From positions 1-64,000 of the forward strand of contig VUYT01000032.1 of assembly GCA_008802785.1 (NCBI GenBank): a DNA stretch of 64,000 nt, in the 5' to 3' direction. Of this stretch, positions 26,013 to 63,910 are shown in pieces (position 1 is the stretch's first letter; each line of letters opens with the position of its first letter). A model generated the notes under the pieces. The model ran no database searches and was not told where the DNA came from. It was given only the letters and a program-made list of their open reading frames with translations. Position numbers and translations under genes: made by a program. This stretch comes from Symmetrospora coprosmae (taxonomy: Eukaryota; Basidiomycota; Cystobasidiomycetes; Symmetrosporaceae).

Positions 26013-28590
26013 ATGGCCAGCAGCAGGAGCAGTAGCAAGACTGCCCTCACACCCTTGGAGGCCAAGAAGCGCGCGCTCAACCTCAAGATCCTCAAGCGCC
26101 ATGACGCCAACATTGTCGATATCGTCGAGAGCACGAGCTACGTCGTCCTGTACCGGTACGAGCCGGCCAAGGACGGCAGCGACGACATGGCCTGGGTGGG
26201 TGCTGGCACACACACAATATGAATGCGCAAGACAGGCTGAGCGGTGGTCTGCCGCTCTCCGTGCGGCTGCAGGTCAAGACTGGGATGGAAGGGAGCATGT
26301 TCCTGTTCAGGCGGTGCGTCCGTCGGAAGGCCGGGTGGCACGTCATGCGGAGGCGTCCGGACGCCCTCTTGAGCCTCAAGAGGGCGCCGCAGCTGCAGCT
26401 TCGAGCTGGCATCGAGCTGATGCGGATGCGGTTGCTCTCGTTACTGTCGACTCGTTCCTGCACGCAGCTCCGTCGCACCCCACTACGGCTTCTTTATCCT
26501 GAACAGGCACGGCGTCGACAGCTTCTGCGAGGACCTCGTCGACGAGAACAACCTCGAGCTCACGCCAGAGTACATCATCTTCCAGAGCCCTGACGGTCAG
26601 TCGCGTCCCTCCTCGCCTCTCAGTCGATGTGCGATGGGCTGCCAGGCTGACTCGCTGCTACTGCTGCTATCGCCGCCGCGCTTCTCCGCCACAGACCGCA
26701 TACACGGCATCTGGGTGTTCGAGGAGGAGCATCGTGACCTCATTGGGCTGCGGATGATGGAGTGCGTCTGACCCTTCTTCGCGCCTGAGATGCTCGTCGT
26801 ATCCTGAAGGAGCGATTGACGATTGTCCTATATCTAAATCCCCTCCTGCGCAGACTATGTCGGCTGGCCATGCAGCCATCAAACGCCCTGGCCGAGGCAG
26901 CAGCGAGCGTGAAGCCCAGCGACACGTCAGCTGCTGGAATCCGCGCCCAGCACGAATACTCTCGACCGACGGAGCAGCAAGCAGAGTCGCGGTCGGACGC
27001 GCAGACGCTTCCAGCTGCAGGCCAGAGCATCTCCCTCGACATGCTCTTTGGAAGTGCGGCAGGAATAAGCCAGCCGTCAGCGTCAGCGCAACCGCCTCCA
27101 CTGCCAGCGGAGCCGGAGCCGGAGCCGCAGCAGAGCGGTCTGTCCCTACTCGATACCTTGTTCGCCAGCATTCCTTCCACAGTGAGCCTTGGCTCTCGCG
27201 GCAGATCCAGTCTCTTGTGTGAGATAGCTTAACGAACCCGCCTCTCTAACCAACCCCTGCTCGCCATTCGCAGTCGACCAAGCAAACCTCGCCAACGCAC
27301 GGCGAGAGAATCGCCAACGCTACGGCTGACGCGCGTACGGCGGCTCAGACGGACGAAGACGCCTTGCGCACACTGCTGGGCCTCAATGCGCCATTGACCT
27401 CCGCCGCTACTCACCCGCCAGCGTCCCACCAATCCCCGCAGCAGGCGCAGCCCGCCGTACGGCAGATGCCGCCGGCCCCTTTCGGGCAAGCATCGTCTTC
27501 TGGCAACAGCAACGGCAGCGCTGGACCGTCGGGTGCGCATCAGCAGCATCTCTACAGTCAGCAGCAGAGACATCCGCACCAGCACCAGCAGCCAGCAGCG
27601 CATCAGCCGCCCTTTGCTCCGCAGCCACAGCGTGTTCCTCAGTACGCGGCTTTCGAATCGCCAGTGCTGCAAGCGCGCCAGCCGCAGCAACCGCAGCAAC
27701 AGTTTTTGCCGCCGCGGCAGCAGCCTCAAGCGGAGCAACCTCAACAGCAGCCACCTCCGCCCCAGCAGCAATCGCAGGACTATCAACGCGGACAGCAGTC
27801 TCAGCAGCAGTTGCAGTCCCAGCAGCAGCAGCAGCAGAGAGCCCAGCAGCCACCATTGCCATCTGCCCGCTTCATCTCCGCCCCGCTCATGCCTTCTGTT
27901 TTGCTCAACAAAGCGAAGCCGAAGCCCTCAACGACGAGTGCGGGCACAAATGCCACCTCGGCATTACCGCCCGTCTCGCCTTCTCAGTCCACAGCCGCCC
28001 AACAGCTCTCCGCCAGCGCGAGCGCGCCCCCACCCATCCCGCTGCCGTCGCCCAGTGCACCGCCCCTACCTGCCCTCGCCTCGCCGCCATTCCAGCATGC
28101 GCTTCCGCCTCACATGCAGCTGGGTCGCATTCCTAGCGATGATGGTAATGCCTCCCTAAACAGAAACGGAGCACAGAGCATCCCGCCGCCACCGGTGCCA
28201 CCGGTGGAGTCGCGTCCCCCTGGGTCGGCGGGTACCGCACTCGTCTCCCCCCCTGCTGCCGAGGCCGATCGGCCGGACTCACTCACTGCCGGCGGGACGG
28301 TCGATATGGTCAATGGCATGCTGAAGCGGAGCCACTTCTATGCGGCAGCGAGCAGCGGAGGCCCTGCGCTGGACCGACAGACGTTCCGCTCTCAGCTTGT
28401 CGGCTTACTGCAGGTGAGCTCGCCGTGTGCCTCGTCGACATGTACCGTACTAGTGCATGCTGATGCGATTTCTCGATACAATCAGGACGCAAGATTCACG
28501 GAGGCGCTCTACCAGGCCTACCTCGGCTCGCTGTCGGCTACCAGTTCTGGCACCAACACCGCTGCAGGCGAGAGTGACAGTCTCATCTGA
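26013..28590 (+). CDS. DCP1: mRNA decapping protein Dcp1
   Basis: Dcp1 activates the decapping hydrolase Dcp2 in 5'-to-3' mRNA decay and sits in P-bodies. The EVH1-like domain is built from LNLKILKRHDANIVDIVEST, SSYVVLYRYEP-like exon 1, KTGMEGSMFLFRR, YYGFFILNRHGVDSFCEDLV, LTPEYIIFQSPD, and IHGIWVFEEEHRDLIGLRMM, in family order. A long low-complexity linker follows: Ser/Ala/Pro-rich, then a Gln-rich block (about 27540-27860) and Pro-rich runs. The C-terminus MLKRSHFYAA with FRSQLVGLLQ, and DARFTEALYQAYLGSL in the last exon, matches the Dcp1 trimerisation helix. Few fungal Dcp1 proteins keep that helix; budding yeast lacks it. Exon joins near 26220-26500 are not fully fixed. Confidence 0.88.
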
Positions 28591-28826
28591 GCTTCAGCAG
28601 TCTCTACGCTCGAATGGCATCACCTTGGCAATGTCGTGTCCTATAATACCCGCGCATCAGCAGTCTCACGTCCCGATGTACAGACACTCCAACCTATATC
28701 TTTCATTTATCAAGTATACATGGAATACAGGCAGCAGTCGCAATGCATGCATAGTTTTACGACCCCATCCATGCTCCTGGCCTGATCGCTCATATGGACG
28801 GAACAGGCGCTGCGCACGCGCTGCCG

Positions 28827-29515
28827 CTACCGCTTTGCCTCCTGCTGGGATTGCACTTGGGCCTGGGTCTGAGCATGCGCTTTTGCCCGTGCTCGCTCGG
28901 CCGCTTCTGGTGCCATTGTCACATCCACACCCTGCAGCCCGAGATTCTCCCATTCGTCCTTTTCCATGAGACCACTGTGAGCACGATCCAGCGACGACGC
29001 GTGTCGAGATTGTGCATCAGGAACGAGGTGCTACGAGTTGCGAACTGTGGAGGCAGGGAGAGAGGTAGGACACTCACTTGTCCATGCGGCACTTGAGATA
29101 TTCTTTCGTCAGATGCCGGCACTTGCCATTCTCTCCCTTGTTTGACTTGAGGCACTTGAGGTATGCCGTCATGAACTGCTTGCACTCGCCTGTGGAAGCG
29201 ATGGATACGTATTTGGTCAGCTGATGTCTGTATGTGCTGAAGGAGGGCCAAAGAGAGAGTTGTTGGTGTCGTGATGAGGGGAAGACAGAGGGGGATGCGC
29301 AGGAGGGAGGTAAGGATACATTGAGGGTGGGAGTGGTGCGGAAACTCTGGACGAACCATCGTGATCCAAAGGAAATGACCCTCTGTCTGTGCGTATACAA
29401 GCACGACACGCTCGTTAGCCTTCACAAGCTGGACATCCCCATGCAAGAGAGCCGGACGCGCACCTGGCGCGGTGACTGCAAAATTGGAGAAGTTTGGCGG
29501 CTTTCCGAACGACAT
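28827..29515 (-). CDS. COX19: COX19, cytochrome oxidase assembly factor
   Basis: Cox19 is a twin CX9C protein of the intermembrane space that helps deliver copper to cytochrome c oxidase through Cox11. The start [20 protein letters not shown] is the family N-terminus. The two CX9C helices are [11 protein letters not shown] and [11 protein letters not shown], each with exactly nine residues between cysteines. The end is [18 protein letters not shown] and a Gln/Ala tail. A 24-nt exon (29357-29380) supplies GSFPLDHD between the N-terminal exon and GECKQF. The intact twin Cys pattern implies oxidation by the Mia40 pathway. It diverges from RBX1 by 375 bp. Confidence 0.95.
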
Positions 29516-29890
29516 GATGCGACGGAGAGTGCAATGTCAAGGCTCGACTGGCTTCGCGGAGAGTGAGGATGAGGTTCGAAGGGAGCGAAAGAGGGATCCC
29601 TCGAGCTTCGGGAGTGTGCCGCGTTCGATGGTGGCGAACTCGAGTGCATGAGCAGCTCTGGCGCAGACCCGTATCACAGCTGTTCAGACCGGCGCATCCT
29701 TATCCTTGTCGAGGTCGTCTACTCTTCCGTCAAGCCGAGCTTACCTCGCAGGCTGGCAACTGGGCAACGTCTCCGGGCGCCCGTCGGATCCGTCAGACCT
29801 GCGGCGTGCACGCGCTTTCGTCGTCGACACCCTCGACACGCCCGTCTCAGTCCTCACAACTCAAGCGCACGAAGGGCAGGACCAGCAGCG

Positions 29891-30655
29891 ATGGACGTGG
29901 ACAAGCCAGAGAAGAGCACGACGACCGCGTCAGGGGACAGCAAGGCGCCAAAGCGTTTCGAGGTCAAGAAGGTGGGCCCTCGTCATCTGCCCGGGCGGCA
30001 GAAGGGCGTCAGGCACAGCAGCTAGCTGATGCGGCGTCCTGCCCGCACACCAGTGGAATGCAGTGGCATTGTGGACATGGGGTCAGTATTACCACGACGA
30101 AGTGGGTGCCGCTCTACGTGGGCTGACGTCTGCCGCCCGAACAAATGCTCCGCAGACATGCAGGTCGACGTGAGTTGTATGGTCAAGCCGTCTCATCCCA
30201 GCGCTGTCTGACACGCGAACTGTGCACCACATACAGAACTGCGCCATCTGCAAGAATCATCTCATGGAGCTTTGTGAGTCCACTTGTCCGGCAGGTGTGC
30301 GATGCTGCTCCCCGCTGAACGCCGCTGGTGTCCGTCCCCGCCGTCAGGCATTGAATGCCAGGCAAACCAGGCATCAGCAACATCCGAGGAGTGCGCCCCG
30401 GCCTGGGGAACCTGCAATGTGAGTCTTCCGCTCTGCTCAGCTCTTCGTCAATGCCCAGCGCTCATGCGCGTCCTCTCCAGCACGCCTTCCACTTTCACTG
30501 CATCTCACGCTGGCTGAAGAGCAGGAACGTCTGCCCGCTGGACAACCGGGAGTGGGAACTGCAGAAGGTGGGTTTGCTCGTATTATACCTAGAAGTGCAC
30601 CAGGTCCGTCTGATGCCGTGTCTTTACCCCCTGCCTTTCATAGTACGGAAAGTAG
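29891..30655 (+). CDS. RBX1: RING-box protein RBX1/Hrt1
   Basis: Rbx1 is the RING subunit that binds cullins and recruits the E2 in cullin-RING ligases. The first exon gives [20 protein letters not shown] then KRFEVKK. A 28-nt exon (30054-30081) encodes WNAVALWTW and a 14-nt exon (30156-30169) encodes DMQVD. Then come [32 protein letters not shown] with GTCN, and [20 protein letters not shown], which supply the complete RING-H2 zinc ligands. The last tiny exon adds YGK before the TAG at 30653-30655, matching the usual KYG end. Seven exons cover only 765 bp. Confidence 0.95.
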
Positions 30656-30897
30656 ACCGACCTCCCGTCCCACAGAACTCGTCATCATCGTCAAAGGTCA
30701 GGCATACCATGCCGAAGCGCGCAGCGGCATCCCTTTACCCTCCTGCCCTCCATCAACTCTGTCGTAATCCTTAGCAGCAGCAGTTCCTCTCCCATGTATC
30801 CATCCTCCCTGTTTCCTGCCTGAAAAATCAGGGGCGCGAGTTGCGCCTCGACGTGCTTCCTGCGGTCTGCTGGTTGCCTTCAGCCCTTCTCCGAGTC

Positions 30898-31155
30898 ATG
30901 TACTATGATCTCAACATACCATGGCCAGCGCGACCCCTGCTGCCTGGCAGTAGCAGCAGTCACAGCGGTGGAAGGGTCCCGTCCTCGTCCACCTCGCAGC
31001 AGCCTCCCTCCAAAAAGCTAAAGGGAAAGCAGCAACCGGGTACCGCAGCGACGCCGTCGGACGCGCCGAAACGGGGTGCAGAGCTGCTGGCGCCGCATGA
31101 GAGGGCAGAGCTGGAGCAGAGCACCCGGATGGCCATCAAGCGTGGGTCGCATCTA

Positions 31156-31193
<38 letters not shown>

Positions 31194-32576
31194 GTGTGCT
31201 GCACAGGCATACTGAATCCGAGGGTCACGCCGCTTTCGCAGTCGGGTACTCGACTGTCGCATACAACGTCGTCCTGCCCATTGGCGCGTTCGATATCGGC
31301 ACTGTAGCAGACCTGAATCCATGCTATGGAGCGCAGCCCGTCTTTCCGGAGCTGGACACACGCAGAGCTCCGAGCTCTTCCTCCAGCGGACAGCGGCGAG
31401 CTCTACAGCTGAGCCGCCTGACGGTCCTCCTCGACGAGAACAGCGTCGGAGGCGCAAAAGGCAACGGGGCCATGTTCGTGCGTCTGGTTTTTCGCACTCA
31501 TGGCCGGCTATGGCTGTACGCTCGGCGGCGCACCTGGCTGATCTGGCCGCCACATCCGGAACATGCAAGACCTCGAGCNNNNNNNNNNNNNNNNNNNNNN
31601 NNNNNNNNNNNNNNNNNNNNNNNNNNNNNNNNNNNNNNNNNNNNNNNNNNNNNNNNNNNNNNNNNNNNNNNNNNNNNNCTGCACCTCGGGCGGGCACGAA
31701 CTCCTTCCTCCTTCGATGGCAACGACGATGGCACTGGTCGGGCTCGGGCGGCCGGCTATGGCTGTACGCTCGGCGGCGCACCTGGCTGATCTGGCCGCCA
31801 CATCCGGAACATGCAAGACCTCGAGCAATGCCAACCTTTTGGCCGGATACAACCTCATCTCGGCCCTGCCCCTCGACTCGACCGCCTTCTCGCAGGTCTG
31901 CCTGTCGTACTCCTCGCCCGGCCCATCGAGCATCGACATTATCGCTCTCGACCTGGCGACCTCTGCGCGGCTGCCGTTCCAGCTCAAGCGCAGCATGGTC
32001 CTCAAGGCCATTGCGGACGGGGCCGTCTTTGAGGTCTGCTACGGCGTAGCCATGCGCCTTGGAGATGGCTCTGGCTCCACCTCTGGTGCTGCTGCGACAG
32101 GCCAGATGAGCGGTGGCCCCGTCCCGCGTGACGCCAGGCGGAACGTCATCAGCGGGGCGAGGGAGCTCATCCGCATCACGAATGGCAAGGGCATCATCCT
32201 GAGCTCCGAGGTGCGGCGCTGCATGGAGCTCCGGGGTCCGTTGGACCTCTGCAACTTGTGAGTCGGCCACGCTTTGATCGTCATCGCCGGCCTGCCGGTC
32301 TCTAATGCCGTCTCCACCTCCTATTCGCACAGCGGCACCATCCTCGGCTTCAAGCCAGACCAGGCGAAGGCAGCCGTGTCTGCCAATGCGAGACTGGCTG
32401 TGCTTCGCGGGCATGCGCACAGGCAGACGTATCGCAGTGTCATAGGTAACCCGCAAGTCCTGATCACAACTGCGGCGGTCGGACCGTTGAACGCGACCCT
32501 TGATCAGGAGACGGAGACGGAGACGGATGAGGGTGTTTCAGTCGGAGAGAAGAGGAAGCGCACGGTTAGCACATAG
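30898..32576 (+). CDS. RPP1: RNase P/MRP subunit Rpp1 (RPP30), interrupted by an assembly gap in an intron
   Basis: Rpp1/Rpp30 is a TIM-barrel-like protein core subunit of RNase P and RNase MRP for tRNA and rRNA processing. The product begins MYYDLNIPWPARPLLPGSSS. A basic linker then leads across intron 31142-31241 to LGYSTVAYNVVLPIGAFDI, then LSRLTVLLDENSVGGAKGNG. After the gap intron it continues SSNANLLAGYNLISALPLDS, SIDIIALDLATSARLPFQLK, and KGIILSSEVRRCMELRGPLD. The last intron joins CNF to GTILGFKPDQAKAAVSANAR, and the tail is acidic. Taking the donor at 31478 and the acceptor at 31817 (or 31568 in the left copy) joins GAMF to TSSNANLL in phase, so the 100-N gap falls wholly within an intron. 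Confidence 0.9.
31158..31190. repeat. (GCT)11 microsatellite in RPP1 intron 1
   Basis: Eleven perfect GCT units just after the intron donor of RPP1. It reads as poly-Leu if not spliced, which explains a misleading open frame here. Confidence 0.95.
31502..31578 (+). repeat. 77-bp exact duplicate, left copy (repeated at 31750-31826)
   Basis: These 77 bases end exactly at the N gap and recur without mismatch at 31750-31826. The base before each copy differs (T against C). The sequence is part of an RPP1 intron and the first bases of the next exon. Confidence 0.9.
31579..31678. other. assembly gap, 100 N
   Basis: A run of exactly 100 N, the conventional placeholder for a scaffold join of unknown size. 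Confidence 0.99.
31679..31755 (+). repeat. 77-bp exact duplicate of 38304-38380
   Basis: The first 77 bases after the gap match 38304-38380 without mismatch and then diverge. The other copy lies in intron 1 of RPL24, 6.6 kb away. It overlaps the 31750-31826 repeat by six bases (GGCCGG). Confidence 0.9.
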
Positions 32577-32726
32577 ACGGTCGAATGCGTCCGTCATGCA
32601 TGTTGTTGTCGTCAGTAGAGTCGCGTTGAAACGTCTTTCTCGGTGGCGTGGACGCGGTCAAAGTCACGAGATTCGGGACGGACCTTGCCGGTTTTTCTCA
32701 CCTCACAGAGCAGCAAGCACAGAAGG

Positions 32727-35700
32727 ATGGCCACAGTGAGGACAACCCTGGCGATAGGTGCGTCCTCTCCATCTCGAGGAGTAGACCAAGCGGCTGCCGT
32801 ACAGTTGCAGCACTGCTACTGCTAGCTCTCGTCTTCCCTACCTTGCGCGCTCGAATTAGCATGACTAACCTACTCCCCGTTCATCGGCCTTGCCTCTCAC
32901 AGCCAACATTCACTGCCCATCCTGCATTTCCTCCATCGAATCCATCCTCTCATGCTACTCCCTCCCACCCCCATCCAGCCCGTCCACCCGCCGCAACAGC
33001 TTCGAGAAGGTCGTCGACGCCCTGAATGTCGGCGGCGTTGCCCCATCGCTGGTCCGCACGCGGTCGCCCGATGCCAGCTCGACGGCACCGCTACATATGC
33101 AAGATGTAGAGGCAGTTCACTGCCAACCCGCATTCACCGACGTCAACGTCTCGCTGCTCGCTGGAACGGTGACCTTCACCCATTCGCCACGCTACACCCT
33201 GGCTCCGGTCATAGCGGAGCTCGAAGAAGCCGGGTTCGAGGTCATTCACGCGCCAGAGACGCTTGATCGTGGCAGTCTGGCAGGGCGACAACTTCAGGCC
33301 CACCCGCACTCGTCCAAGTGGCGCTGGCTAAGCTTTGGCGAGCTTTTCACCTCGCCCAAAGCGGTCGAGCGCAAGGAGCAGGCGCACCGGGACAACTGCG
33401 CGGCTTGCAGGGAGCAGGAGGATGCCGAGGAGTGCTCTCGACAACGATATGCAGCCAAAGGCAAGGACAGGGAGGTCCAGGCAGACGCAGTTGCGGATGA
33501 CCAGAGGCCATCCGAGGCGCCGCTTACGGAGGTTGTGTTCTCGATTGACGGCATGACCTGCAGGTGCGTGGACTCCTGCATTGATGCGTGACTATGTGGC
33601 ATAAGCTGAGGAGGCCGGGCGCTCTTTGTGCGCTCCCGCAGCTCATGTACTTCTGGAATCGAAGCTGCTTTGAGTCCAGCTAGGAATCTCGGCATACACA
33701 ACATTACAGTCACTCTGGCCTACAATACTGCCACGGTTGTCTTCGACTCCACAGTCACCACTCTCGAGCAGATCAAAGAGGACATTGAGGATCTCGGCTA
33801 CGACGCCGCAGTCAGCAGTAGTCGGGCCGTGACTGCGAAGCATCCGCCTCCCATTCTCCCCACTCAGCCTGAGCACGATGCTACCGGCAAACTCCCAGAC
33901 GGCAATGATGGTATATTCCGCGCGACTCTAAGCATCGGCGGCATGACCTGTGCCTCCTGCGTTAGCGCTGTTGGCAATGCTCTCACGGGCATTGATGGCC
34001 TGCTAGACTACAGCGTAGACTTGTTGGGATCCTCGGCCAGCATCAATGTCACAGCAGTGACAGTTGTCGGACGCGTGCGCGACGAGATTGAAGATGCGGG
34101 GTATGACTGCGCTATTCTCGCAGTGGAGGAAGTCAAGCCGCCGCGGACGGTCGAGGCAGAACAGCCTTCACGAGGCGAAGAAAGCAAGCGAACGGTGGAT
34201 GTGACCATTTCGGGCTTTTTCTGCGAGCACTGCCCAGCAAAGGCCAATGCTGCGCTTCTCGACCTGTCGAAGCGCTTTGACATCTTCTACACGCCTTCAA
34301 CACTGGCCAACCCCGCCTCAAGCATCATGTACACGCCCTCTCCTCCCTCTCTGACATTGCGCACCATTAGGTCAGCCATGACGGAGCTCGGCTTTGCGCT
34401 TGACGTCGTCAAGAGGGAGACGCTGCAGGACCGTGCCCGTCAGGCCCAGAAGGAGGAGCGACGCCGCCTCCTCATCCGGCTCGTCATCTGCATCATCTTC
34501 TGCATACCGACCTTCATTATCGGCGTCGTAGCGGCCTCTCTACTTCCCATGCACAATCGCTTCCGCATGTACTGGGAGGAGCCGGTATGGGGCTCTGCAA
34601 CCCGAATGACTGTGGCCCTCTTCGCCTTAGCCACGCCGGTGCAGTTCGGCGTTGGCGAGTTCTTCTACATCCGGTCCTACAAGTCTCTGCGCGCAGTCTG
34701 GAGGAGAAGGCGCGGGGGGCGCGCAGGCGGCGTATCGCAACGGCGCATCTGGCTGGACCGCCTCTTCCGCTGGGGCTCGATGGACAGCCTGGTCGCACTT
34801 GGCACGAGCATTGCCTGGCTCAGCTCGTTCGCATACATGGTTCTCGACATCACGACGCCCGGCATGTCAGAGATGGCCTACTTCGACACGAGTGTCTTTC
34901 TCATTACGTTCATCCTGGCTGGACGCTACCTGGAGAGCCTGAGCAAGCAGAAGACCGGAGACGCCTTGCTAGAGCTGGGGAAGCTGCGGCCGAAGAAAGG
35001 GCTGCTATACGACGAGAAGGAAGGCAAGGTCGTCGAGGAGGTCGAGTCTGCCTTCATCGAGATCGGCGACTGCCTCCTGGTCCCCGTCGGAGCGTCGCCA
35101 CCTGTCGACTGCGCCCTCGCTGAGTCCAGCACAGTCACCTCATTCGACGAGGCTTCCTTGACTGGCGAGAGTCGGCCCGTCGCCAAGAGGCCCGGTGATC
35201 CGATTTATGCAGGGACGCATAATTCGGGTCCGAGCGCTGCGATCGTTATTGTCAAGCGGCGCGACGGCGAGACTGTGCTCGACAGCATTGTTACGGGCGT
35301 GCGAAATGCCATGTCGAAAAAGGCCAGCATCGAGCGGCTGGCCGATGCCATCACTGCCGTCTTTGTGCCTGCCATCGCAGGCGTAGCATGTCTCACCTTC
35401 GCCATATGGATCATCCGAGGCTACTCTGGCAATCTACCGTCGGAATGGCTTCGCGATCAGAAGGGCGGTGGATGGGTTCTGTTCTCCGTCCAGTTCTCTG
35501 TGGCTGTCCTGGTTGTTGCTTGCCCCTGTGGTATAGGGTAAGCCTGTTTGGCCTGTCGCTTGCCCGCGTCTCGCCTGCTGACCAGACCGTTGCCTAGTCT
35601 CGCTGCTCCTACAGGGCAGTTGGTCGGAGTCGGTCTTGCAGCTCAGCATGGCATCATGCCCAATGGAGGTGGCGAAGCCTTCCAGGCCTTTTCCACGGTC

Positions 35701-36896
35701 GACGCCATCTGCTTCGACAAGACCGGCACAATTACCAAGGGCAAGTTCCAGGTATCTGACCACCGCGTCATCGCGCCTTCGAGCACACGTTCAGAAGGAT
35801 CTGGACCAGGACTAGGACTCACCGAGAACGAGATCTGGCAGGTGCTAAGTTCGGTGGAGCAGGCGTCAACCCACCCGATTGCTCTGGCAGTCCAGGAATT
35901 CACCAAGCAACGATTGTCGCTGGTAGATGACGCACCTCAGTCCACTTTAAGATTGCACGACACCATCGAGATTCCTGGCAGGGGCATGTCGACGACCGTG
36001 CAGCGAGATGGCATGCCGGCCTCGTCTCGCATCCTCGTGGGGAATGTCAAACTGCTCGACGGCAACGGTATCGCCCTATCTGCCGAACATCAGAACATGG
36101 TCAACCACTGGTCCAATCAAGGGCAGAGCGTCGTGCTGATCGCGAACGATCAAGGTCTGCTGGCGGCGCTTGCGGTCTCGGACCCGCTACGGGACGAAGC
36201 GCGCTACGTTCTTGATGCGCTCCGCAACGATGGCGTGGAGGTGTACATTGTCTCTGGAGACAACTCCACGACCGTGAGCGCTGTCGCTCGGACTCTCAAC
36301 ATCACAGAAGATCACCTCGCTGGCGGAGCTCTGCCGGAGGACAAGCGGGATTTCGTCGAGCGGTTGCAAAGGCAGCAGAAACACGTCCGGACCTGGCGCG
36401 CATTTGGCCGGCGCACGACGCGCAGGAAAATCGTAGCATTCGTGGGCGATGGCATCAACGACAGCATCGCTCTGTCGCAGGCGGACGTGTCCATCGCCCA
36501 GGGCGGAGGATCAGCGGTCGCAACATCAACGGCTCACTTTGCGCTCCTCAATGACTCGCTCCTCAGCATCCTCACTCTGCAGAACATCTCGCGAGCTACG
36601 TACCGCCGCATCGTGAGCAACTTCTGCTGGGCGTCCGTCTACAACATCGTCCTCATTCCACTGGCTGCGGGCGCGTTTTACGATCTGGGCGAAACGAAAC
36701 TGCCGGCTGTCTGTGAGTTGTTCGACATGACCGACAACATTGCCGAAGGCGAAGTGGTTGACGTCGGGGGCACTTTCATGCAGGGGCATCGCTTGCGATG
36801 GCACTCTCGAGCGTGAGCGTTGTCGTCAATTCCCTGCTCTTACGGTGGACATTCAGGCAGCCAAGGGCGGTTAGGCAGTATTCCGATCAAGCTTGA
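32727..36896 (+). CDS. CCC2: copper-transporting P-type ATPase, Ccc2/ATP7 type
   Basis: A P1B ATPase that pumps Cu(I) into the Golgi for multicopper oxidases. Four N-terminal metal-binding domains carry CxxC: CPSC, CSSC (made across an intron near 33563-33640), CASC and CEHC. The membrane region starts RRLLIRLVICIIFCIPTFII. The actuator has SLTGESRPV. The ion-binding helix reads VLVVACPCGIG|LAAPTG across an intron, where many relatives have CPCALGLATP. The phosphorylation site is CFDKTGTITKGKF, the nucleotide-binding HP motif is STHPIALAV, and the hinge is VGDGINDSIALSQADVSIAQ. A final intron (36712-36780) joins LPAV to WASLAMALSSVSVVVNSLLL, so the true stop is TGA 36894-36896, not the in-frame stop at 36814. 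Confidence 0.95.
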
Positions 36897-37149
36897 TGCA
36901 GTCGGGAGGCGATAGTGAGGAAGGAAACGATGCAGTGCAGAATAGCAATGTCTTGCCAACATACCAGCGCGAGCTGCACACCGTCAGACAGAAGCGATTG
37001 CAAGGAAGCGGGCAGGCGCGACGAGCAGACTAGGCTTTGACACTTACAGATTGTGACGGAAAGCGGGAAATCCCGTCTTGCTCCACCCGCCCTGCATCTC
37101 GACCACTCCCGCTATCCCCGCGGGCAGAAAAAGGTGACAGACAGCGAGC

Positions 37150-38441
37150 TTATCGCTTGCCGCCGGCCTTCATCTGGTTCCGGCCGAGCTTGGGTGCCGA
37201 TGCGGACGGGCCCTTTGGCTGTGGAGTCGGGGTCATAATCTCAGTACGGCGCAGTGGCTGAATGTTCGCTGCGAGGTATTCCCCACCTTGTCGCTCTTCT
37301 TCTTCTCCTCAGCAGCCTTCTTCTTGTCCTTGCCAGCCTGGAGGGCAGCCTTGCGGGCAGCCTCACGGACCTCGGGCTTCTGAGCTGTGTGATGCAGGGG
37401 CACAGTGTGCAGGATGCGTCAGCATGCCGCCGAGATCTGCGGCTTGTATTGATGCTATGACTGACTTCGGCGAGCGGCAATCTGGTCGAGGCTCAGGCCA
37501 GCGATGCCTCGCTGAGCCTTGACGGACTTCTTGGAGCGCTTCTTTGCGACCTCCTCGCTGATTCCCTTGCGGTGAACGCGGCGGTAGACCTGCGTCCAGG
37601 AGATCTTCCTCGGGTTCTTCCTCTGGAGGAAGAGCGACTCCTCCTTGGAGGCACCGAATCGGAAGACCTTGGAGTCCATGCGGACGTAAAGGCGTCCCCG
37701 ACCGGGCTGTTACACGTGCAGCGAGGTGCAATGCATGTCAGCAGCTGGTCCCGCTGCAGTCTGAAGTGTTGAAGAAGCGCTCGTCGGTTGCTGCGCTCTA
37801 CCGCTCTGCCGCTCTGCCTTGCCCCCGCGCGATGTTGCGCATTCTGTGGCGCGGTCGAGGTGAGCGCCGGCCCCCAAAGAAGGACCGTTATGCGCTGGGC
37901 GATGCATGGCAGAGCAGAGAGCTGCTTATCCGACAAGCGCTGCAGCAGCGAGATCACGTACGTAGATCTTGTAACCGGAGAACACGTCCCTAAGCGCGCG
38001 GTGAAGAAGAGCGGGTCAGTCCGTGTACGCTTGCTACCTGATGCGCTGCAGCTGCTGCTGGACCCCGCCGCCTCCGGTGTCCGTCGTCCATCGTCGCTGC
38101 CATTGCCGCCCTCGCTGCTACAACCGCTGCAGCATCCGGGCCTCCTCTACTGCCTGGTCGATATGCGGTACACTGCCCAGCTGCAGCCGGCTATCCTCCG
38201 ACGTATGGCGTTGCTGGGCTGCCCAGCTACCTCTCGCAGCTCAGCTGTCCGTGCTGTCCTACGGGCCGCTACTGCGGCTGTTCATCCTGCACCCGCGGTC
38301 CCCCTGCACCTCGGGCGGGCACGAACTCCTTCCTCCTTCGATGGCAACGACGATGGCACTGGTCGGGCTCGGGCGGCCGGGCGGTACGGCACGCTAGCAG
38401 CAGCAGCATGTGCGCATGCAAACGCACTGCTCGACCTTCAT
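37150..38441 (-). CDS. RPL24: ribosomal protein eL24
   Basis: eL24 of the 60S subunit. Exon 1 is 14 nt (38428-38441) and encodes MKVE plus part of Q. A 438-bp intron (37990-38427) follows, then a 28-nt exon (37962-37989, DVFSGYKIY), a 255-bp intron, and PGRGRLYVRMDSKVFRFGAS. The body continues RKNPRKISWTQVYRRVHRKG, EEVAKKRSKKSVKAQRGIAG, and KPEVREAARKAALQAGKDKK, ending GRNQMKAGGKR with the stop at 37150-37152. Long first introns behind a start-proximal exon are common in fungal ribosomal protein genes. Intron 1 carries the 77-bp segment that recurs beside the gap in RPP1. I saw no C/D or H/ACA snoRNA signature in either intron. Confidence 0.93.
38304..38380 (+). repeat. 77-bp exact duplicate of 31679-31755
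   Basis: Lies inside RPL24 intron 1. It matches the contig start after the N gap over exactly 77 bp. Confidence 0.9.
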
Positions 38442-38697
38442 CTTGAGGGATTCTTGATGGTGTTGATGCTGTCTCGAACGCCGCCTCCAGCCCTGAGGTC
38501 GCCGCCTATCCCCTTCTGCGATCGCCTCTGGCCCCTGCGCTGCTCCTGCCCTCCCCTCCCTGCCCTCTGAAATTTCGGAAGGAAGGGGAGACTGGCGCGA
38601 CCCCTCACGCAGAGCAGGGAGACCGATAAATCGCGTTGCAAACAACAACAAAAGCAATCTACTAATGGATCGTTCCGAGCAATGGAGATGAGCAACA

Positions 38698-41600
38698 TCA
38701 CTCTGAGCTATCGCTGGTGCTCCCTGCCTCCGCCTCTGCTTGCGCCAGATCCTCCAGAGATGGCAGCCCCTTCTTGCCCTTGCCCTTGAGCAAGCTGTGA
38801 TTGAGGAACGTGTAAAGCTGCCTGCCTGCCTCGACACCGATGAGCCGGTTGATGTCCTCCAGCGACATCTTGCTTAGCTCTTCAAAGTTCTCTACGTTCT
38901 TCATCAGATAGGTATAGTTTTTGGACGTCTGCAGACAGGCCGCCGATACACATTCTTGTCAGACCGTGTGCAAGCATCTCGCAACGTGGCTCCGATAGGA
39001 GCCAACTCACAATGCCGGGCAAGCTTCTAAGGATCTCCTGCGGAATTTGGTTGATGATTGCCTCCGCCTCACCTGCAGCACCCTCACCGCTCTCCTCGGC
39101 ACCTATCGCTGCTGCTTTGGTTGCGTCCGGCTCGTCTCGATTCGCCTTCAGGTCGGCAAAGATGTCTGCTGTTGCGTATGGCGACGATGACCAGATGGTG
39201 CGGACGCGCGGGAATGTCAGCGTCAGCAAGACCAGCTTGGCATGCAGATCGGTGTCATTCCCGCTTGGATTGAACTGAGCCGATGCATTGCCTCTGGCGT
39301 CCGAGTAAGTCTATTGCATATGCGCGAGAGATCAGCCGCAGCACCACATCTGACCTGCAGACCGTAGCCAGGTGGACTGACCTCGAGAGAGAAGGACTTC
39401 TTCTGGTCGAACTCGATGAGAAGGATCGGGATCTTGTAGTGCGTGGACATGACTTCGCATTGCTGGTATCTGCAGGAGCGCTGGACCTGTCAGCTTCTGC
39501 CAATCGGTTTCCACTGCATCAGCACGCCTTACAATCGACCAGAGTTGAAGGATTGGATGAGATCGGGCAAGCTCTTCCTCTCGACAGCCATTTCCGGGGA
39601 AAGGACATAATCTCCGATGGTCAGGGTTAGAGGCTCGACGATGAAGCCTGCCGCATGTAGCAATGAAGGGAGTGAAGAGCGGAACTCTCGCACATCCACC
39701 ACGACCTGCAAGAGCGAAATGTCCCTCAGTGAATGCCTTTTCCAGGCTTTGCTTCGGGTGCCCTGGCCCACCTTTGGCGGGTCGGCTCTGGCATGCCGTC
39801 CTCCTCCTGCGACACGCGTGCTGACTGTCCGCAGATAGTCGTCGGCGCGATCTTCGTTCGGTCTGCGCTCGGCTTGCAGTGGGATGGCCATGCTCTGGAG
39901 CGTGTCCCACACGTGTCGCTTCGGTCAGCGAAGGCTTCCTAAATACCGCGCAGCGCCAGTCGAGAGCTCACCGAGCGTTCCCGGATTAGCCTTTCGAAGG
40001 ACTCGCGCTCTCGACGGATGCTGCTGAGATACTTTTGCTCTTCGGCTGAATTGGCGTAGATCATAAAGTACGCCATGATGCGGAGGCCAGGGTGGGCGGC
40101 ACGGTATGTCTGCAGCGGTGTCACCATCATCAGCACCTAGCGTTTTGCTATTCAGCAGCGACCGCGCTCGACGCTCACTCACCTCCAGCCGCCGGATGAA
40201 ACTCGGGTCTGGATCGAAGAGGATGATGTATCTCGGACGCAGCTCTTGCAAGACCTGGTCATCCTCGTCCCCTGCGTATGCGCGTATGACTACTGTCTCT
40301 TCAGGCGCCAGCAAGCCGAAGTACTCATCGAACGCGACCACGTCGAACGCGTCGTCTGCCACAGCAATGGAGCTGGCAAGGAGTCCGTCGGTCCCTTCTC
40401 CTATCGAGGCAGCCATACTTGATGCGATCTCCTCGGCTTCGATCTCGAGGTTGGTCAGGGCGGACCCGGGGCCGGTTTTCTCCTTCACAGCGCTGCTTCG
40501 GGTAGTACTGGAGCCGGCCTTGCCACCGCCTCGCACACGCCGCCGCTTGCCGACAGGCTGCCCATGCTTGTACTGCCCTTTGCGCTTCATCGCTGCAGAC
40601 TCGTAGTTGACGTCCTTGGTGTTGCCCTGATTGGCACCTGGCACAAGGCCGGGCTTGCTCAGTGCCGAAGCGCCGGTTTGCACCGAAGTCTTGATATTCC
40701 GGCTCATCTTGCCCAGACCTCCCTTCCACAGGAAATACTCATTGGCTCGTGCCAGGAGGAGATCTCTCGCACCCGTATCCCTACTTCCGACAGCTGTGGG
40801 ACCTGGCCCGTCTCCGTCGGCATCACGGTCCAGCTCTGGGATTGATGTCAGGTACTTCCGAAGTGTTGTCGCAGTGGATATGGACCCGCACATGACGAGG
40901 ATGGTATCGCTGGATGTCGTGTCGAAGTCCACAGGGGACCAATGGATCTTCTCCTCGATCTCTTCGAGTATCTCGCGAAGCAGGAACCACTTTGGCTGCT
41001 CTTCCAAAACTGGCTGTGTGCCAGGCGGACACCAGTACGCCCACGGGCTATTCTGTGGCTTCGAGTTGTAGAAGTCCGCAGGCAAGCCATTTCTGTCAAT
41101 GCCATTTGAGGGTCCGCCGGACTCCTTGCCCTTCCCCTTGTCGAGTGTAGAGTACGCGCGGAAGATGTCGGCCGCGTTATCGTTCGTCTCGTCATCCAGA
41201 GTGAGATCGTATGTGTTTGCGCGAGTGGCCCCGGCCGGCGCAGTCTCGCCCGCTCTGGCGGCTGTAGGGGATGACGAAATAGGGATGGGTGCCGACTGAC
41301 TAGCCGCGAGAAGTCCGGGATCTCGGAAAAGCGAGTCATCCCCATCTCCCCAGTACTCGTCGTCTTGCTCTAGATCTGCCTGTAGTGTGCCTGCCGCCGA
41401 GATCGGCCGACCCTGCTTATCGATCGTGCCGTTCGAGCTGGTCAGGCCTGACTGACTGATCGACCCACTTCCGGTGTTTGCGGTCGGAGCTGCGCTATCC
41501 TCCTTCTCCTTCTCTTTCTCCGGCTGTACGGCTACCTGCCTGTACACCCTATTTCGTGCAGTCTCGATGATGGTGTCCGCGGCAGGAAGGAAGAGCCACG

Positions 41601-42714
41601 GACTCTGATTTTGCACTGCTTTGCCCGTGGTAAAGTTGGTCGTGTTGCTAGCGACAATGGTCTCGAGGAACTGATTGAATGTTACCGCATCGAACGACAA
41701 CAGATAGGTCAGGAGCTTTCGTAGAGTCGCGAGATCGTAGACGAGACCGCGCGTCTTCGGTCCGATGCGATGCCAATGCGGATCCAGCTGTTTCTTGATG
41801 ACAGCGTCGAAAGAGCGGAAGAGTGCGTTCTGCACAGTGAGATCCTCCACTTCTATAACGGTATTGCTGCGCTTGAGCTCGGCGAGAGTTGCGTCCATGC
41901 ACTCGATGATGGCGGTCTGGATTGTGTCCATGCTGTCGCTGAGAGGCTGATGCAGATTGATGACATCGCCCGTCTGCTTCTCTAGATCCTTGTTGACGAG
42001 CTCGTGAAAGCGGGGATAGAGGAAGACGTGGCGGATGTGAAGCTGGGTGAGGACGGTCTGAAGAGGAGCCACGCCGAACGTGAAGGACTCTGGCTCGTCT
42101 GAGAAGGCTTTGATGAAGCCGGTCTGTAGCATCAGGGGCGGTAAGGCGCCGGGCAGTCAGCGCGACTATCGTACAGCCTGGACAGGGGGCCAAGAGCCCA
42201 CCTTGTTCTTCTCTCGGAAGACTCGCATGACGAAGGCCTCCATAGACGTAGGAGTGACATGCTCGGCGTGCAGAACGACAATGCCAGTGAGCTCCTTCAC
42301 CGGTATGCGCTCGAGAAGGAGGTCGACAATCAGAATGCGCGTCGTGATGGAGACGACGCCGCCTTTCTTGTAGGCGGCTTGCCTGCATCGGAGGCGGTAG
42401 CAGACCATGAGCATGGATGATGCACATAACGTTACAGCGAAGCGAGGTGCGCACCTGTCCTTGGCGGGCATCTCAAACGCCACGGTCGTCAGTTTCATGC
42501 CGAGCTCCTCCCCGAGTCCGATCTCCTCCTCAGGCGTGGCATTGACGACGACGACGAGGCTCTCCTCTTCTGCGTAAGTCTCGAGCAGGCTGCACAGGAC
42601 GGCGCGTAGCCCGAGCCCACGGGCAAGAAGGACGAGACCATCGGATTCAGGGCCAGGCGCCGTCAGCTGCTCGAGAATGTGTCGCTGGAAGGGGAGCAGC
42701 TGAGTGGACGCCAT
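38698..42714 (-). CDS. RAD1: XPF/Rad1 structure-specific endonuclease
   Basis: XPF (with ERCC1/Rad10) cuts 5' of lesions in nucleotide excision repair and at recombination and crosslink intermediates. The start [20 protein letters not shown] opens the degenerate SF2 helicase half: [53 protein letters not shown] 735-codon exon (39925-42132) carries [14 protein letters not shown] and a long acidic Ser-rich spacer. The nuclease domain reads [20 protein letters not shown], then [20 protein letters not shown] with the catalytic GDY and ERKxxxD motifs. The tandem HhH2 end is [35 protein letters not shown]. All catalytic residues seem present. Confidence 0.95.
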
Positions 42715-62485: not shown

Positions 62486-63910
62486 ATGAGCGCGTCGTAC
62501 GTGCTGTACACGTCGCCCAACCACCCACCGGTGCCGGATCACCTCCCTGCTCTCGTGAGTCGGCCTTGTCGAGGCTCGAGCTGCGTGTTTACCTATCCTT
62601 GGCCCCTTTTCCCTTTTTGGGCCTCGAGGAGGGTTCCACGAAGGAAGGGCACAGAGCAGGAGATGCTGATGCTGATGCTGATGCTGATGCTGCTGATGTC
62701 CTTGCGCGCATGCTTGACAGATTGTCACTCCGTACGGCAAGCCCGAGCAGATCCTGTACACCTACCTGGTGAGTGTGTCACGGCTCGTGCACCCCAAGTT
62801 GCGGGCGCGCCCACTGCAAGCGACACAGAGCGGCATCTGACACGCATATATGCACCCCTGCTCTCCAGCACACCAACTACAACAGAGAGAACTACCTCCT
62901 CACCCCATCACCTCAGGGCGATCTCTGCGTGGCAAAGCTCTTTCCCCCACCTGCCGCGCCTCTCAGGCCAAGCGGAGGCAAGAGCGTCTCGGAGAGCGGC
63001 CATGGAGGACAGCCGGGGTCTTCGCTGCGCACAGTCAAGTGTGAAGCGTCAAGGAACTTCAAGTGGTCCATCACAAATTCGGGTGTCCTGACGTGAGCGA
63101 CTGCCAGATTCTCAGCTGGGCAGCGCCTTCAGTCCGCTTCGCTGACCCAGCCGCTCTTGTTCGCAACAGGCCGACATACAAGTGCACGCTACCATCAGAC
63201 GAAGATGGAGGGCTGGCAGACGAGCAGCCGCTTTTTCAAATCTCGAAAACGAACCCGTCCAGTCCATTCTGGACGCTGTGGTACTATGCCTACGCGGGAC
63301 GTAAGTGCCACGGCCTGGCTCGTCTCCTTGCTGCTGACGACACAGAGCTCACACTGTCGCACTGTTCATCAGACCTCATCCCGCCCCGCCGCATCCAGTT
63401 CGGACACATCAGCAAAAGCATCACGCCCGAGGGCAAGCCCATCACGGGCGGCGGGACGCGCGTGACCATCACGGGCAAGACGGACGAGGAGAAGGCGGTA
63501 TGGAAGACGCTGGGTGAAGGAAACGAGGATATGGTCGAGTGGGCGGTGATATGCGCGGCGCTGCACGCTCTTGACGATGAGATTGTGAAAGCGGCAGAGG
63601 CGGCTGGCATCAGGATCGGCGTCATGCCCGGCTCACAGCAAAAGGGCGGCCCGCTGAATGCATCAACCCCGCCCATGCCCCACAACATGCCTAGGCCGCA
63701 GCTGCACCCGACTGGACAGGCTGGCCCAAGCCACAACCAGCAGGTCCAGCCGGCGAGAGGACCGCCCGTCATTCCGAACTCGCGCGGCCCTCAGTCGCAG
63801 CAGCAGCAGCCAAGGGGACCACCTCCGCAGCAAGGTAGCGATCCTAGGATGCAGCGAGATCCTCGCATGATACAGCAGCAGCAGCAGCAGCAGCAGCAGC
63901 CGCCGCCCCC

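What the first reader, a model, noticed from the sequence alone, without database searches (positions are those of the whole stretch)
31502..31826. The N gap is an assembly artefact: two exactly 77-bp duplications frame it
The last 77 bases before the gap recur at 31750-31826, and the first 77 bases after it recur at 38304-38380 in the RPL24 intron. Both repeats are exact and both are 77 bp, a common de Bruijn k-mer length. The two overlap by six bases (GGCCGG), as at a chimeric junction. The simplest reading is that 31579-31826 is spurious and that 31578 should continue at 31827.
Basis: partly seen in the sequence, partly recalled or inferred. Interest (0 to 1): 0.72.

Follow-up and report, generated by a model that had tools for sequence, protein, structure and literature searches.

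The report
Short-read assembly artefact at a gap
Two identical 77-base stretches around a run of Ns are footprints of the software that assembled this draft genome, not a feature of the organism, although the reads behind the odd join could come from a real duplicated or circular 6.6-kb piece of DNA.

Summary
The window has one gap (31579-31678, 100 N). Its left flank ends in a 77-mer (V1) that recurs at 31750-31826; its right flank starts with a 77-mer (V2) that recurs at 38304-38380; the two overlap by GGCCGG. The assembler's k was evidently 77: among 82 ends of 41 of the 77 contigs (one end unreadable), all 7 end pairs sharing 60 bases or more share exactly 77; one search adds one pair. A k=77 de Bruijn graph of the flanks joined at 31578/31827, plus model reads jumping from 38380 back to 31750, gives unitigs that lay out letter for letter as window 28001-42000. 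So 31579-31826 does not belong between 31578 and 31827.

A 6,625-bp tandem duplication gives the identical unitigs; the gap would then stand for the collapsed first copy. A circle could supply the same junction. That segment holds heavy-metal ATPase reading frames. Only reads can decide. As a genomic feature this is ordinary assembler behaviour.

The parts
31502..31578 (+). V1, first copy: last 77 bases of the left contig (graph vertex, k=77)
31579..31678 (.). gap of exactly 100 N (probably a placeholder length)
   Evidence: only gap in the contig
31679..31755 (+). V2, displaced copy: first 77 bases of the right contig, identical to 38304-38380
31679..31826 (+). edge E: 148 bp = 2 x 77 - 6, the junction edge from V2 to V1; spurious or misplaced here
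   Evidence: equals the junction unitig of the k=77 graph
31750..31755 (+). GGCCGG, 6-bp microhomology at the junction, shared by 31750-31755 and 38375-38380
   Evidence: random junctions in this contig reach 6 bp or more in 0.18% of 199,635 trials
31750..31826 (+). V1, second copy: start of graph edge B, the continuation of 31578
31750..38380 (+). graph edge B (6,631 bp); loop body 31750-38374 (6,625 bp) if the junction is real DNA
   Evidence: unitig B
38304..38380 (+). V2 at its own place, inside the inferred first intron (about 38426-37990) of the RPL24-like gene on the minus strand
   Evidence: frames, exon borders inferred by eye; Ribosomal_L24e in the last exon
31478..31817 (+). inferred second intron of the RNase P p30 gene, which holds the gap: 340 nt as written, 92 nt when 31578 is joined to 31827
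   Evidence: one of four GT-AG pairs that keep the frame, chosen by inference

Best explanation
The gap and both 77-bp repeats are footprints of a k=77 de Bruijn assembly (SPAdes-like). The graph held a loop: edge A ends in vertex V1, edge B runs from V1 to V2 (31750-38380), edge C leaves V2, and a 148-bp edge E leads from V2 back to V1 through a 6-bp microhomology. The assembler printed A, then 100 N, then E-B-C, so V1 and V2 each appear twice. 31579-31826 does not belong between 31578 and 31827; the true adjacency is 31578 to 31827. Shown: k, the repeats, the exact graph layout, and no other continuation of V1 in the genome search. Inferred: the assembler's name and its path choice. Undecided: whether edge E came from a library chimera (slightly favoured) or from DNA really present in the culture.
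For: Exact 77-bp repeats whose ends coincide with both gap edges. Independent evidence of k: 7 of 7 contig-end pairs sharing 60 bp or more share exactly 77 bp, involving 14 of 82 ends examined, one of the 82 being unreadable N; C3/C44 likewise. E is 2k-6 = 148 bp. The k=77 graph reproduces window 28001-42000 exactly; k of 55, 99 or 127 would give junction edges of 104, 192 or 248 bp. V1 and V2 were found nowhere else. One Pfam RNase_P_p30 alignment crosses the spliced gap (110.7 bits, residues 75-325; 79.8 bits for the right part alone), so both flanks belong to one gene.
Against: No reads, no graph file and no second assembly of the species could be examined. No other 100-N gap was seen for comparison in the 248.6 kb read. 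The spliced p30 protein is the same with or without the join, so the gene does not test it; in solved structures its only strong match (residues 266-340) lies right of the gap, and the match that crosses it is weak (11.3 bits). Four of six contig ends searched singly had no 77-bp partner.
Confidence: 0.95

Rival explanations
1. A library artefact supplied the junction reads: template switching or mis-annealing at GGCCGG, or circularisation of a 6.6-kb mate-pair fragment.
For: Microhomology-induced chimeric reads are described for end repair in formalin-fixed samples (PMC8674242, passages). A 148-bp edge could be covered by a single read of about 150 bp (read length here unknown).
Against: Both partners lie only 6.6 kb apart in a 20-Mb genome, unlikely for random joins, though perhaps only such loops leave a visible trace (inference). 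Random junctions share 6 bp or more in only 0.18% of trials, which speaks against a blunt mate-pair join. [quoted passage not shown]
Confidence: 0.55
2. A real 6,625-bp tandem duplication (31750-38374) in the sequenced strain, formed through the 6-bp GGCCGG. The true order is A-B-E-B-C; the assembler collapsed the first copy of B, and the 100 N stand for it.
For: The tandem duplication gives the same unitig set as the chimeric reads. A ends at the start of B and E begins at the end of B, so the gap lies just where the first copy would be. Six bases of homology are rare at random junctions (0.18%). A false edge would more often have been removed for low coverage (PMC6736328, passages; applied here by inference).
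Against: No coverage data. Recent, wholly identical tandem duplications are rarer than library chimeras (general knowledge, not tested). The assembler's path choice may be arbitrary.
Confidence: 0.25
3. A 6.6-kb extrachromosomal circle, or a duplication in part of the culture, supplied the junction reads; the main chromosome is A-B-C.
For: Direction and distance fit a circle of 31750-38374. Yeast alternative end joining needs about 2-25 bp of homology (PMC11879418, passages). The segment holds heavy-metal ATPase reading frames.
Against: No circle enrichment or read data; a rare circle would give a weak edge that should have been removed.
Confidence: 0.15
4. The 248 bases are a genuine templated insertion: a piece of the RPL24 intron copied into the p30 intron together with a 77-bp duplication.
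For: None here beyond the fact that such insertions exist (general knowledge).
Against: It would have to match the assembly's k exactly at two unrelated places and stop exactly at both gap edges.
Confidence: 0.02

Closest known systems
Contig-end overlaps of length k in de Bruijn graph assemblies (SPAdes type, k=77)
   Same: Exact repeat of length k at sequence ends, here and at other contig ends of the same assembly
   Different: Here one copy lies inside the neighbouring contig of the same scaffold, because the graph forms a loop
Chimeric (erroneous) connection in a de Bruijn graph
   Same: Edge of length 2k minus microhomology (148 = 154 - 6) joining two otherwise unconnected places
   Different: Coverage, the usual criterion, is not available; it forms a backward loop rather than a distant link
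Tandem-duplication or eccDNA breakpoint with microhomology
   Same: Backward direct junction 38380 to 31750 with 6 bp shared
   Different: No read depth, split reads or long reads to show that the DNA exists

Membership tests
k=77 de Bruijn assembly footprint | repeat length equals k, shown independently of this locus | tested here: met
   7 of 7 end pairs sharing 60 bp or more are exactly 77 bp, 14 of 82 ends; C3/C44 exactly 77; 4 of 6 ends searched singly had no partner
k=77 de Bruijn assembly footprint | repeat copies end exactly at the contig (gap) edges | tested here: met
   31578 and 31679 are the gap edges
k=77 de Bruijn assembly footprint | graph built at this k reproduces the printed sequence | tested here: met
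   A + 100 N + E + B + C equals window 28001-42000
Chimeric connection (false edge) | edge length 2k minus microhomology | tested here: met
   148 bp; also met by a tandem duplication, so not discriminating
Chimeric connection (false edge) | low coverage relative to flanks | not testable with these tools
   no reads or coverage available
Tandem duplication | backward direct junction in the graph | tested here: met
   38380 to 31750; same unitigs as the chimera model, so not discriminating
Tandem duplication | double coverage of 31750-38374, or reads spanning two copies | not testable with these tools
   no reads
Extrachromosomal circular DNA | resistance to linear-DNA digestion or circular read evidence | not testable with these tools
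   needs laboratory material or reads

The most novel reading that the evidence does not exclude
The junction is real DNA: the sequenced strain carries, in all or part of its cells, a 6.6-kb microhomology-born tandem duplication or circle that amplifies an apparently whole heavy-metal P-type ATPase gene, and the assembler's gap hides the first copy.
Probability: 0.38. Interest if true: 0.35.

Novelty: not a real feature. Interest (0 to 1): 0.12.

Why it matters
Mainly a warning. Gene models and repeat surveys that take 31579-31826 at face value would lengthen a p30 intron by 248 nt and report false segmental duplications. The signature (repeat length equal to k at a gap edge, plus a junction edge of 2k minus the microhomology) is a simple test for such places in other drafts. 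If the junction is real DNA, it would be a hidden copy-number change that includes a metal-transport gene.

Tried and rejected
Genuine templated insertion of RPL24-intron sequence: rejected, since both repeat lengths equal the assembly's k.

Using the p30 gene as a test of the join: one Pfam alignment spans both sides, but the spliced product is the same either way, and the match to solved structures that crosses the gap is weak. Splice sites were chosen among several that keep the frame: many for intron 1, four for intron 2, three for intron 3. Reading straight through the join without an intron leaves the p30 frame.

The first bases of C55 read N; whether that is a gap or a withheld stretch is not known.

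Searching contig ends one by one: of six, C3 5' has an exact 77-bp partner at the start of C44, and C25 5' starts like C57 (exactly 77). C25 3', C21 3' and C43 3' matched only themselves, and C21 5' has a 95% copy inside C74.

Literature: six searches, for exact k-length contig-end overlaps, listed no paper. Passages of three papers were read. Two original SPAdes papers are not held. That SPAdes writes 100 N when it crosses a loop is recalled, not checked. The organism was not identified (listing only).

Full report
Observation. The window has one run of N, 31579-31678, exactly 100 long. The 77 bases before it (31502-31578, called V1 here) recur exactly at 31750-31826, and the 77 bases after it (31679-31755, V2) recur exactly at 38304-38380. 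V2 ends and V1 begins with the same six bases, GGCCGG, at 31750-31755. The window is bases 1-64000 of contig C25 (213,397 bp) of a 20.05-Mb genome in 77 contigs. In all of C25 there is no other gap, and only one other exact repeat of 40 bp or more, a 367-bp direct repeat. In the genome, the stretch 31679-31900 matched only itself and the two 77-bp places (which scores only its best candidates).

What 77 is. If 77 were the assembler's k, other contig ends should share exactly 77 bases where the graph forks. I read 200 bases from both ends of 40 contigs and of C25: 82 ends of 41 of the 77 contigs, one of which (C55 5') begins with N. Longest exact matches between ends were computed. Seven pairs share 60 bases or more, and all seven share exactly 77: C1/C63, C5/C19, C5/C41, C9/C17, C27/C53, C41/C51 and C57/C25. 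Six of the seven begin at the very first base of both contigs; in C27/C53 one is shifted by one base. All other shared stretches reported were 59 bases or less, mostly runs of G or C. A later search added C3/C44, again exactly 77. Of the six ends searched one by one, four had no such partner. So k = 77 is supported without using the gap.

The layout as a graph. I built a de Bruijn graph with k = 77 from the flanks joined at 31578/31827, plus 150-base model reads that run up to 38380 and continue at 31756. Its unitigs are A (ending at 31578), E (148 bp, equal to 31679-31826), B (31750-38380, 6,631 bp) and C (from 38304). Writing A, 100 N, then E-B-C gives window 28001-42000 letter for letter. 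The length of E is 2 x 77 - 6, as expected for a junction with six bases of homology; with k = 55, 99 or 127 it would be 104, 192 or 248. Within the assembly, the only continuation found for V1 is that at 31827. Thus 31578 continues at 31827, and 31579-31826 does not belong between them.

What the graph cannot say. In the same script a 6,625-bp tandem duplication of 31750-38374 gave the identical set of unitigs. In that case E is a true junction, the order is A-B-E-B-C, and the gap stands where the first copy of B should be. A circle of 31750-38374 would supply the same edge (inference, not simulated). For a real junction: six bases of homology are rare at random junctions (0.18% of 199,635); both partners lie close together in the right direction; [quoted passage not shown] Against: microhomology also drives chimeric reads in library preparation, as described for formalin-fixed samples (PMC8674242, passages read), and a distant false edge would probably leave no visible trace, so closeness may be a selection effect (inference). 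Yeast alternative end joining needs about 2-25 bp of homology (PMC11879418, passages read). I give a library origin about 0.55 and real DNA (duplication or circle) about 0.4.

Genes. The gap lies in a gene whose right part matches RNase_P_p30 (79.8 bits). Exons spliced across the gap give a 387-residue protein with 110.7 bits over residues 75-325 and profile positions 18-214 of 214, in one alignment that crosses the gap. It matches human RNase P p30 (E 4.8e-17) and yeast RPP1 (E 1.2e-6) in solved structures, but the strong stretch lies right of the gap and the stretch that crosses it scores only 11.3 bits. The inferred intron is 340 nt as printed and 92 nt after the join; its splice sites are one of four GT-AG pairs that keep the frame, and the spliced product is the same either way. 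V2 lies in the inferred first intron of an RPL24-like gene on the minus strand (frames; Ribosomal_L24e 75.8 bits for the last exon). The loop body also holds reading frames between 32869 and 36816 with HMA, E1-E2_ATPase and Hydrolase domains, a heavy-metal P-type ATPase; the match in the first frame, 23.8 bits to HMA, is just under its cut-off of 24.8, and the gene's start was not determined.

Verdict. This is an ordinary short-read assembly artefact, tied to k = 77 by evidence from other contigs. The correction 31578 to 31827 is well supported; the origin of the junction reads is not decided and needs the reads.

Noticed in passing
L007:7365-7731 and L007:9732 to L008:98 (C25:101365-101731 and 103732-104098): Identical 367-bp direct repeats that start 2,367 bp apart; no CA end and no target-site duplication seen in the ten bases on either side, longest stop-free stretch between them 160 aa. 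A possible small repeat element or recent duplication.
   Followed up: partly
ends of contigs C23 5', C26 5', C29 5', C33 3', C63 3' (L030, L032, L034, L076, L091): Several contigs have long, nearly pure G or C runs within 200 bases of an end, whereas all of C25 holds only one such run of 12 or more. Either real G tracts that stop assembly or no-signal G artefacts.
   Followed up: no
L064 (C11 3' end): The end consists of CCCCAAA-like repeats (GGGGTTT on the other strand), which looks like a telomere of unusual type.
   Followed up: no
31158-31191 and 63873-63900: Trinucleotide runs (GCT)n and (CAG)n; the first lies in the inferred first intron of the p30 gene.
   Followed up: no
1-77: The window's own start is a k=77 fork: it is shared exactly with the start of contig C57, and a 97% copy of bases 1-200 lies inside C21.
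   Followed up: partly
39925-42156 (minus): A 743-aa open frame without a Pfam match at E 0.001; from memory it resembles part of an XPF/Rad1-type nuclease, untested.
   Followed up: no
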